Assembly: GCA_937934635.1 (NCBI GenBank)
Contig: CALGZD010000214.1
Location: forward strand, 1 to 7,468
Length of the DNA stretch: 7,468 nucleotides
Direction: 5' to 3'
Source: an uncultured Deinococcales bacterium
Lineage (GTDB): Bacteria; Deinococcota; Deinococci; Deinococcales; Trueperaceae
The stretch's first letter is position 1, and every line of letters begins with the position of its first letter. Position numbers and translations under genes: made by a program. Positions 1,473 through 7,468 of the stretch are shown piece by piece. The notes beneath the pieces are model-generated. The model saw only the letters and a program-made list of their open reading frames with translations, was not told the DNA's origin and searched no databases.

Positions 1473-1534
1473 CCACAAGACTGTGACGTTCTTGCGTAGA
1501 CCTTATTCTTGAATTAATGCTAAGTTGGCTATTA

Positions 1535-1576
1535 GATTTAAAGCAGGAGATTTAAAGCACGAGATTTAAAGCAGAA
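1535..1576. repeat. 14-bp tandem repeat, three copies
   Basis: GATTTAAAGCANGA is repeated three times head to tail (1535-1548, 1549-1562, 1563-1576). Variation is confined to the last few bases (CAGGA, CACGA, CAGAA). It lies 54 nt upstream of the DUF3809-like ATG, in the 180-bp space after the 87-residue gene. It could be a slippage product or a multi-site operator; position alone does not decide. Confidence 0.9.
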
Positions 1577-1630
1577 AATTATAAGTGTCAGCGTTCAGAT
1601 AGTTAAAGTACCCGAAAATAGGATAGTAAG

Positions 1631-4798: not shown

Positions 4799-4902
4799 TA
4801 TTACGAAACCGAAAAAACTACTTTCTTTTTGAACCGAAAGACACCTGATTGACAAGACTTTGCTAGAAAAACACTGCTGTGCTTGTGGTCATGAAGTTGT
4901 AG

Positions 4903-4930
4903 TTATGACCTTTATGATTAACTTCGGTAT
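4903..4930 (+). repeat. Dispersed intergenic repeat, copy A
   Basis: This 28-nt stretch matches 7252-7279 at 26 of 28 positions in the same orientation. It contains TTTATGATT and ends ACTTCGGTAT. Weaker similarity extends left (a TTGTG about 18 nt before) and right (CATCA and ACTT/CTTT words). Flanking bases AGTTAT and ATAACT can pair to form a hairpin around it, with one bulged base. It is noncoding on both strands as far as I can see. Confidence 0.8.
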
Positions 4931-5015
4931 AACTCATATTAAGCTTTCTTATTCATCAAGACTTCATACCAAAGGATGAACCTGAAAAGTTGCGCTAGTA
5001 TATTGCTGTAATAAC

Positions 5016-5916: not shown

Positions 5917-5932
5917 CTTTAAAACTTGCTTG

Positions 5933-5964
5933 GGATATAGGGATATAGGGATATAGGGATATAG
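5933..5964. repeat. 8-bp tandem repeat, four perfect copies
   Basis: GGATATAG is repeated four times without variation between the bidirectional terminator and the lipoprotein stop codon, 6 nt from the latter. On the minus strand it lies in the 3' untranslated part of the lipoprotein message. Perfect identity suggests a slippage-prone, recently expanded tract. Confidence 0.95.
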
Positions 5965-5970
5965 ACTCGA

Positions 5971-6882
5971 TTATTGGTACACAACTGAAGCAGTTGCTGT
6001 TGGGAAGCTTCCTAAGTTCTGTCCTAAATCGTAAGTTACATGGTGGTCACCATCTGCAGGTGAAGGACCAGCAAGTGGTTTGAACGCGAATGGTGCTGGG
6101 CTATCATCAGCTTCTGGTTCAATTGATATAACAACTGGATTACCTAAAAGGTTTGTTGGGAAGCGAGCATCGTTTGCTACAAAGTCTTCGCCTGGGAACG
6201 GTGGTCCACCTAGTGGTCCACTAAACGGTTCAGCATCATCAGCACCTGTTGCTGACGTAAATCTACCAGTTGTTACTGGAGCACCATCGATAACAACCCA
6301 GCCTTCATATTCCCAGCCTGCAGGTAGTGTTGGTAAAGATAAACCTGCTGCAGGACTACCTGAGCTTAGGTCAATAAACCAAACACCACTAAATTCATCA
6401 TCATCGGTTGCTGTAGTTGGTGTTGCTAAGATGAATTTACCAGCAGCGCTTGAAAAATCATTACCTAAAGCTGCTGGGTGACTAGCAGTTAAACTAGAAG
6501 AACCATTGCTAAGTGCGCCACCTAAAACTTTGGTAGTTGCTGGGATTGTGTCTGTATCACCGTTTGGTTCAATGGTTAAAACAATATCACTTGCATTACT
6601 GATGTCAGAATCTACTTTAAACTCAGATACAGCACTGCCATCAAGGTCAACAATGTTGCCATCACTATCGATGTTGAATTTACCAGTCGTTACTGGAGCA
6701 CCATCTACAATTGCCCAACCTTCGTAGTGAAATCCATTTGCTAAAGTTTCTAAACCAGATGTTTGCAGTGTGAGTGTTGAGCTCTTGGCTACTGGTGTTG
6801 TTTGACTACATGCTGCAAGCAGTGCAGCAGTTGATACAATCAATAGGGCGGATAATGTTTTCTTGCGGAAAATATTTTTCAT
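5971..6882 (-). CDS. Lipoprotein with two tandem 'YEGW-DGAPVTTG' modules
   Basis: A 303-residue product with a lipoprotein signal: KNIFRKK, a hydrophobic core at 10-22, then lipobox LAAC with Cys25, so it is probably membrane-anchored outside the cytoplasm. The body is a duplication. Module 1 (about 44-123) has YEGW, VDGAPVTTGKF, TIEP and KVLGG. Module 2 (about 183-272) has YEGW, IDGAPVTTGRF, SIEP and KPLAG. A linker with VWFIDL (about 167-172) joins them. At DNA level the DGAPVTTG codons match at 24 of 25 positions (6264-6288, 6681-6705). The motif resembles the extracellular domain of anti-sigma-K factor-like proteins and related uncharacterised lipoproteins; there is no TM or sigma-binding part, so function is unknown. 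The start is supported by GAGAGG (6889-6894) 6 nt before the ATG. Confidence 0.88.
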   Translation of the reverse strand: MKNIFRKKTLSALLIVSTAALLAACSQTTPVAKSSTLTLQTSGLETLANGFHYEGWAIVDGAPVTTGKFNIDSDGNIVDLDGSAVSEFKVDSDISNASDIVLTIEPNGDTDTIPATTKVLGGALSNGSSSLTASHPAALGNDFSSAAGKFILATPTTATDDDEFSGVWFIDLSSGSPAAGLSLPTLPAGWEYEGWVVIDGAPVTTGRFTSATGADDAEPFSGPLGGPPFPGEDFVANDARFPTNLLGNPVVISIEPEADDSPAPFAFKPLAGPSPADGDHHVTYDLGQNLGSFPTATASVVYQ

Positions 6883-6910
6883 ACTAAACCTCTCTTACCT
6901 TCTTTAACTA

Positions 6911-6934
6911 CTGAAAAAGTAACTTCTTTTTCAG
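6911..6934 (-). promoter_or_regulatory. Perfect 9-bp inverted repeat in the lipoprotein leader
   Basis: CTGAAAAAG and CTTTTTCAG flank a 6-nt loop, 28-52 nt upstream of the lipoprotein ATG. If transcribed it forms a leader hairpin ending well before the ribosome site; as DNA it could be a dimer operator. No U-tract follows on the minus strand, so it is not a typical terminator for that gene. Confidence 0.6.
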
Positions 6935-6960
6935 CGATAAGTGAGTTTAGGTTTGAGAGC

Positions 6961-7003
6961 TCACAAGCAAATCACGAGTTATCACAAATCATTCACAAAT
7001 CAT
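6961..7003 (-). promoter_or_regulatory. Helically phased array of four GTGA boxes upstream of the lipoprotein gene
   Basis: TCAC (GTGA on the minus strand) begins at 6961, 6972, 6982 and 6993, that is at intervals of 11, 10 and 11 bp. The two distal units are perfect 11-bp copies (TCACAAATCAT at 6982-6992 and 6993-7003). The array lies about 79-121 nt before the lipoprotein start. Direct repeats at this period are characteristic of OmpR/PhoB-type response-regulator sites, which is the inference here; the regulator is not in the window. Confidence 0.5.
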
Positions 7004-7190
7004 CCCAACTGCAAAACTCTTCGCCGATTCACTGCTGTTGCACAGCAATTCGAGATGAGGGCAAAAAATCTATAGTGTATGGATTTATGCCGATTGTGAC
7101 AGGCTAAGGAAATGACAAACTTAGATTCAAAGATCACTAAAAATTGATTGAATTATACTAAACTGAAAGATGAATGTCATAAAGATATAG

Positions 7191-7205
7191 TCGCAAAGAT
7201 TGCGA
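7191..7205. repeat. Perfect short hairpin inside the foldback
   Basis: TCGCAA and TTGCGA form a 6-bp stem with a 3-nt AGA loop. It lies inside the larger AATGTCATAA/TTATGACATT pairing, which makes a nested, RNA-like arrangement. Confidence 0.6.
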
Positions 7206-7251
7206 AATAACCGAAGGATAAAGGCTTGAAAACCTTGTGTATTGACTGGGA

Positions 7252-7279
7252 TTATGACATTTATGATTCACTTCGGTAT
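7252..7279 (+). repeat. Dispersed intergenic repeat, copy B
   Basis: 26 of 28 positions match copy A at 4903-4930, same orientation. Its first ten bases are also the right arm of a perfect inverted pair with 7173-7182. Its CTTCGGTAT end faces an imperfect complementary AATAACCGAAG at 7206-7216. This copy is in the middle of the 400-bp foldback. Confidence 0.8.
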
Positions 7280-7468
7280 TAGTCCTTTTTCATCACTTTA
7301 CGCCCTACAAGGTACTTTAAATACAAAAAACGAGTTAGTTCATATGGCTAAATTAGCCTTGCTAAATCAAGCAGTATAGAGTTTGACTGGTCATCTCGAA
7401 TTGCTGGCTGTTGCAGTGAATCGTGGAACTGCTATATGTAGAAACGTTAGAATTATTGTTTGTAGTCT

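What the first reader, a model, noticed from the sequence alone, without database searches (positions are those of the whole stretch)
7025..7423. Foldback whose terminal repeats are inverted but whose cores are not
The two ends match as inverted repeats for 11 outer and 16 inner bases, yet the 6-7 nt in the middle of each match do not. On the plus strand both ends carry GCTGTTGCA in the same orientation. In each terminus this core sits at the tip of a small hairpin (GCTGT-TGC-ACAGC on the left, CTG-TTG-CAG on the right). A core turned relative to its flanks is not expected from plain decay of a transposon. It could arise by flipping at a cruciform or by a recombinase acting within each terminus. 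The element is gene-free and about 400 bp, so it may be a non-autonomous mobile unit, a recombination substrate or a structured RNA.
Basis: partly seen in the sequence, partly recalled or inferred. Interest (0 to 1): 0.7.

Follow-up and report, generated by a model that had tools for sequence, protein, structure and literature searches.

The report
Nested mobile elements inside a palindrome
The odd foldback is three layers of ordinary repeat DNA: a short repeated palindrome was split at its centre by a small inverted-repeat element, which left a 9-base duplication on each side and was later hit by a second, common mini-transposon.

Summary
The two same-orientation copies of GCTGTTGCA (7034-7042, 7407-7415) lie exactly outside a perfect 16-bp terminal inverted repeat (7043-7058, 7391-7406). 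This is the anatomy of a 364-bp gene-less element with a 9-bp target-site duplication. The 11-base outer match is the pair of arms of the target. Joining the flanks with one GCTGTTGCA gives TCGCCGATTCACTGCTGTTGCAGTGAATCGTGGAA. That hairpin is 32/35 identical to a repeated palindrome of a sister Deinococcales MAG (G001), with the family at 22 or more places there; two of the three differences form one compensatory pair. The duplication is centred on the hairpin's axis. Inside lies a third layer, a 123-bp MITE (7156-7278) flanked by TTA; 27 of 28 aligned G001 copies show matching triplets (25 TTA/TTA, 2 TAA/TAA) and the 28th was cut short.

So it is a nested insertion; core flipping and a group I intron are disfavoured. 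Open: no second complete copy of the 364-bp element and no transposase for it were found, and whether it prefers hairpin tips is unknown. Insertion at the axis of REP palindromes is published (ISPsy8, ISRm22). New member of a known kind; modest interest.

The parts
7021..7042 (+). Layer 1, left half of the target palindrome: TCGC + arm CGATTCACTGC (7025-7035), running into the left copy of the duplication
   Evidence: family in the sister genome
7034..7042 (+). Left copy of the 9-bp target-site duplication GCTGTTGCA
7043..7406 (.). Layer 2: 364-bp non-autonomous element (238 bp before layer 3 entered, my arithmetic), no ORF of 60 aa
7043..7058 (+). Left terminal inverted repeat CAGCAATTCGAGATGA, 16/16
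7153..7155 (+). TTA, left copy of the 3-bp target duplication of the inner MITE
7156..7278 (+). Layer 3: 123-bp MITE; high-copy family in sister genome G001; with its TTA triplets 99 identities in 131 columns against the G001 consensus
7279..7281 (+). TTA, right copy of the 3-bp target duplication
7391..7406 (-). Right terminal inverted repeat of layer 2
7407..7415 (+). Right copy of the 9-bp target-site duplication GCTGTTGCA
7413..7433 (+). Layer 1, right half of the target palindrome: arm GCAGTGAATCG (7413-7423) and tail TGGAACTGCT, like the family's 3' end
4802..4930 (+). Probable second, diverged copy of the layer-3 MITE in the window; 4903-4940 is 84% identical to 7252-7289, the left half is weak

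Best explanation
A three-layer nested insertion in intergenic DNA of a Deinococcota bacterium. Layer 1 was a repeated extragenic palindrome, CGATTCACTGC-TGTT-GCAGTGAATCG. Layer 2, a short element with 16-bp terminal repeats and no gene, was moved by a transposase supplied from elsewhere. That transposase cut the palindrome with a 9-base stagger centred on its tip; repair left GCTGTTGCA on both sides in direct orientation. Layer 3, a 123-bp MITE of a high-copy family, then entered layer 2 at a TTA and duplicated it. Shown by sequence: the ends, both duplications, the reconstructed target, and the copy families of layers 1 and 3. Inferred: the order of events, the transposase in trans, and any preference for the hairpin tip.
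For: Perfect 9-bp direct repeats abut perfect 16-bp inverted repeats; an exact 9-bp match at a fixed pair of places has a chance of about 5.5e-6 in this composition. The flanks joined with one copy are 32/35 identical to the G001 palindrome in L051/L083; the three differences are one compensatory A-T to C-G pair and one loop base. The palindrome family is at 22 distinct places in G001 by the union, reversed self-matches removed (recounted; two of these, on contigs C465 and C541, share their left flank). Among 12 chosen palindromes (11 of G001 and the joined site) 90.9% of cells pair, against 82.3% in shuffles (0/500), and 13 cells change on both sides (0/500). The inner MITE: 42 matches in G001 at E <= 0.1, some of them reverse self-matches. 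28 copies were aligned; 27 were read at both ends and all 27 carry identical flanking triplets, 25 TTA/TTA and 2 TAA/TAA; the window's copy is TTA/TTA.
Against: No second complete copy of layer 2 was found: in G001 only one exact 16-mer, a solo end in L036. None of 111 genomes of the order has a match to it outside the MITE at E <= 0.001, though in G001 and some others only part of the first-look candidates was scored. None of 14 DDE_Tnp_1 matches in G001 and G026 lies between such ends. So the mobility of layer 2 rests on anatomy. The window's own genome is not held, and the sister locus in L001 shows neither palindrome nor insert, so no clean empty orthologous site is seen. Only the palindrome part of the layer-1 repeat is recognisable in the window. 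In one search two of five measures are not above shuffles (158/500 and 225/500).
Confidence: 0.93

Rival explanations
1. The unit is one foldback element with 34-bp terminal repeats whose 6-7 nt core was flipped at a cruciform or by a recombinase in one terminus.
For: Cores do lie between two inverted matches. In G001 the 4-nt loop of the palindrome occurs in both senses (TGTC in L083, GACA in L084), so tips of this palindrome family can be turned.
Against: Flipping the left core does not restore a match (TGCAACA against AACAGC, and the lengths differ). It does not predict an exact 9-bp direct repeat touching both inner repeats, nor that the joined flanks match a known palindrome.
Confidence: 0.03
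2. A structured RNA, possibly a degenerate group I intron, closed by a terminal stem.
For: Rfam group I intron match at 7062-7214, E 0.019, 22.6 bits; strong fold, z -7.2.
Against: 22.6 bits is far below the gathering score of 50. The match runs into the MITE, and the intron-like AAGATATAGTC (the likeness is recalled) is not in the MITE consensus. 19 G001 loci with MITEs or palindromes gave only three tRNAs at gathering thresholds. The complementary strand folds nearly as well (z -6.4).
Confidence: 0.02
3. The 399-bp unit 7025-7423 moved as a whole and the palindrome arms are its true ends.
For: Outer arms are inverted repeats.
Against: Close relatives of the same arms stand side by side as a continuous palindrome, without any insert, at 20 of the 22 G001 places.
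Confidence: 0.02

Closest known systems
Insertion sequences ISPsy8 and ISRm22 in REP palindromes (PMC1525189; passages and the Results section read)
   Same: Insertion at the symmetry axis of a repeated extragenic palindrome with a direct repeat taken from it; joining the flanks rebuilds the palindrome.
   Different: Those are full insertion sequences, all copies of which sit in REPs, with 3-bp (ISPsy8) or 6-bp (ISRm22, six of nine copies perfect) repeats. Here there is one gene-less element with a 9-bp duplication in another phylum; preference cannot be shown from one case.
Bacterial MITEs such as Correia/NEMIS and RUP (PMC2229807, passages read)
   Same: Small non-autonomous repeats of under 200 bp without protein genes; RUP has terminal inverted repeats and is often found inside other mobile elements.
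   Different: Sequence, and the 3-bp TTA/TAA duplication of the inner MITE; RUP is reported at TA.
YPAL/RU-2 of Yersinia (PMC2229807, passages read)
   Same: Targets span or adjoin dyad symmetries.
   Different: 168 bp with internal inverted repeats and duplications of 3-26 bp.

Membership tests
MITE / non-autonomous transposon (layer 2, 7043-7406) | Terminal inverted repeats with flanking direct target duplication | tested here: met
   16/16 inverted repeats, 9/9 direct repeats
MITE / non-autonomous transposon (layer 2, 7043-7406) | No transposase gene | tested here: met
   No ORF of 60 aa or more in 6883-7468
MITE / non-autonomous transposon (layer 2, 7043-7406) | Several copies in one genome | tested here: inconclusive
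   Own genome not held; in sister G001 one exact solo end only
MITE / non-autonomous transposon (layer 2, 7043-7406) | A partner transposase with the same ends | tested here: inconclusive
   14 DDE_Tnp_1 matches in G001 and G026; three of the 14 loci hold a lone end-like 16-mer at 4 mismatches or fewer, none a pair; other transposase families not tested
MITE (layer 3, 7156-7278) | Many dispersed copies with shared ends and flanking duplication | tested here: met
   27 of 28 aligned G001 copies read at both ends, all 27 with matching triplets, 25 TTA/TTA and 2 TAA/TAA; the 28th, L020, reads TTA at both ends by eye
REP-like palindrome (layer 1) | Short palindrome repeated in the genome, arms covarying | tested here: met
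   22 places in G001; 13 cells with paired changes, 0/500 shuffles
REP-like palindrome (layer 1) | A REP-associated tyrosine transposase in the genome | not tested
   No search made
REP-targeting insertion sequence | All or most copies sit at the same point of a palindrome | tested here: inconclusive
   One complete insertion known; of 22 G001 palindrome places 20 have their arms together and 2 (L090, L094) are partial
Group I intron (RF00028) | Score at or above the family's gathering threshold | tested here: not met
   22.6 against 50 bits

The most novel reading that the evidence does not exclude
Layer 2 belongs to an unnamed transposon group of this Deinococcota lineage whose transposase recognises the folded or cruciform tip of a repeated palindrome and cuts it symmetrically, leaving a 9-bp duplication centred on the axis; the palindromes would then act as safe landing pads for it.
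Probability: 0.2. Interest if true: 0.4.

Novelty: new member of a known kind. Interest (0 to 1): 0.2.

Why it matters
It removes an apparent oddity (a 'turned' core) by showing that a target-site duplication taken from the centre of a palindrome looks exactly like that. It also brings to light two repeat families of an uncultured Deinococcota lineage: a 123-bp MITE with TTA/TAA duplications and a palindromic repeat of about 100-130 bp. Anyone scanning genomes for long inverted repeats will meet the same trap.

Tried and rejected
Core inversion: the flipped left core does not match. Group I intron or other known RNA: sub-threshold and not conserved in the MITE family. Phage or plasmid origin: one weak 35-bp phage match of E 0.6 and no plasmid match; no viral contig matched the patterns of the neighbouring phosphoesterase or the left terminus; the 16-mer alone hits 27 viral contigs, which were not looked into. 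Homologues of layer 2: among 39 family genomes (E <= 0.01) and 111 order genomes (E <= 0.001) no match outside the MITE; the first look was capped in some genomes (in G001, 40 of 68 candidates scored, 17, 6). The 16-mer with up to 1 mismatch hits 4 of 39 family genomes; in the three besides G001 no inverted partner at up to 4 mismatches lies in the 3-kb locus, so they look like chance. Transposase with these ends: not found among 14 DDE_Tnp_1 matches. L094, a right half-palindrome of G001, was checked as a second broken site; no matching left half was found in the 1.7-kb locus. A first pattern for the palindrome gave only hits with 2 mismatches. A first count of the flanking triplets used a faulty pattern (end) and was replaced. 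Left out of the pair count: the repeats of identical sequence and L087, L088, L090, L094, L098, L102 (degraded, partial or near-identical), and L011, a further place seen. Paper searches: 'repetitive extragenic palindromic' with three further terms, 0 papers; MITE + Deinococcus and two more terms, 8, none by title on MITEs of Deinococcota; REP sequences + IS1397 + target, 5; MITE, nested and four more terms, 44 with at least five of them, 15 listed; 'small intergenic repeats' + Deinococcus radiodurans, 0. That these repeat families are unnamed rests on those searches only.

Full report
What is there. The window codes for DUF3248, DUF3809, PIG-L, an undecaprenyl-phosphate translocase-like protein, a metallophosphoesterase and, next to the finding, a protein with a partial RskA_C match (5971-6882, minus strand; a lipoprotein by its start, my reading). 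The one relative found in the genome collection is a MAG contig of an uncultured Deinococcales bacterium (L001; whole genome G001), whose phosphoesterase is 91% identical. The window's own genome is not held.

Check of the observation. The 11 outer and 16 inner bases are exact inverted matches, the 7 and 6 nt between them are not, and GCTGTTGCA lies in the same orientation at 7034-7042 and 7407-7415. In 2000 dinucleotide shuffles the longest exact inverted pair was 13 nt.

Layer 2. Read outward from the inner repeats: [GCTGTTGCA][CAGCAATTCGAGATGA ... TCATCTCGAATTGCTG][GCTGTTGCA]. This is a terminal inverted repeat with a 9-bp target duplication, and neither can be lengthened by a base. The element is 364 bp and has no ORF of 60 aa.

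Layer 1. With one GCTGTTGCA kept, the flanks read TCGCCGATTCACTGCTGTTGCAGTGAATCGTGGAA, a hairpin of 11 pairs with a TGTT loop, closed by two more pairs (-20.1 kcal/mol for 36 nt). G001 has TCGCCGATTAACTGCTGTCGCAGTTAATCGTGGAA (L051/L083): 32 of 35 identical, the differences being one A-T to C-G pair and one loop base. The palindrome is the 3' part of a repeat of about 100-130 bp. By the union it lies at 22 distinct places in G001, reversed self-matches removed (recounted); two of these share their left flank (L049, L052). All 22 were looked at: 20 have both arms together, some degraded, and 2 (L090, L094) are partial. A 23rd place, L011, turned up. In L001 such a repeat stands between the phosphoesterase and the lipoprotein gene, where the window has none, so the family differs in position between the two genomes. 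Over 12 chosen palindromes 13 cells change on both sides of a pair (0 of 500 shuffles reach this), while the numbers of pairs with two-sided changes and of further pair types are not above shuffles (158/500 and 225/500). In the window only the palindrome part is recognisable.

The 'core' therefore is the tip of the palindrome, copied to both sides of the insert. The outer 11-base match is the palindrome's two arms, which is why arms, core and inner repeats look like one interrupted 34-bp terminal repeat. The duplication's centre (7038) is half a base from the axis of the palindrome (7037.5), by my arithmetic.

Layer 3. Searching G001 with the region gave 64 matches at E <= 10, all within window 7133-7294 and some of them reverse self-matches; 40 of 68 first-look candidates were scored; 42 matches have E <= 0.1. 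Of the 30 loci L002-L031, 28 copies were aligned (L024 and L030, partial, were left out). Conservation starts at TTATACTAAACTG and ends at TTCGGTATTA. The triplets outside TAC...GTA agree in all 27 G001 copies read at both ends: 25 TTA/TTA and 2 TAA/TAA (L010, L031). L020's stretch was cut too short in that count; it reads TTA at both ends by eye. The window's copy is TTA/TTA. The paired TAA cases argue for a 3-bp duplication rather than a fixed element end. In the window the MITE is 7156-7278. A probable second, diverged copy is at 4802-4930: 4903-4940 is 84% identical to the first, but the whole-length alignment score of 46 only equals the best of 1000 shuffles. In the alignment with L001 most of it falls in a gap.

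What was not found. Layer 2 has one exact solo end in G001 (L036, about 90 bp from half a MITE, outside any ORF of 70 aa) and no complete relative. 39 family and 111 order genomes show no match outside the MITE at the limits used; the only others are two weak MITE-end matches in G026, E 0.004. None of the 14 DDE_Tnp_1 matches in G001 and G026 lies between its ends. The matching intergenic region of L001 shows neither palindrome nor insert.

Mechanism. Most likely a transposase acting in trans made a 9-base staggered cut across the palindrome's tip, and gap repair duplicated it; the MITE came later, since it lies wholly inside layer 2 with its own duplication. Whether the tip was chosen is open: one case, expected about 2 in 27 for a random hit within the palindrome (my estimate). 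Precedents exist: ISPsy8 (3-bp repeats) and ISRm22 (6-bp repeats) insert at the symmetry axis of REP palindromes (PMC1525189, Results section read).

Verdict. Real, well explained, new in sequence but not in kind.

Noticed in passing
L083, L084, L086, L087, L091, L094 (G001): The 4-nt tip of the palindrome occurs in both senses: TGTC in L083, L086, L087 and L094 (the last partial), GACA in L084 and L091.
   Followed up: partly
window 4802-4930: Probable second, diverged copy of the 123-bp MITE, mostly in a gap of the alignment with L001.
   Followed up: partly
L036 1378-1516: An exact layer-2 end (CAGCAATTCGAGATGAG) about 90 bp from half of a MITE in G001; no opposite end at up to 5 mismatches in the locus.
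   Followed up: partly
window 5932-5964: Tandem copies of a 9-bp unit GGGATATAG between the phosphoesterase gene and the 3' end of the next gene.
   Followed up: no
window 1534-1585: Tandem copies, 14 bp apart, of an AGATTTAAAGCAGG-like unit.
   Followed up: no
L083 5' end of the repeat: The palindromic repeat's left end, CAGCAATTCCATGAAACG, shares its first nine bases (CAGCAATTC) with the layer-2 end CAGCAATTCGAGATGA; the two families may be related.
   Followed up: no
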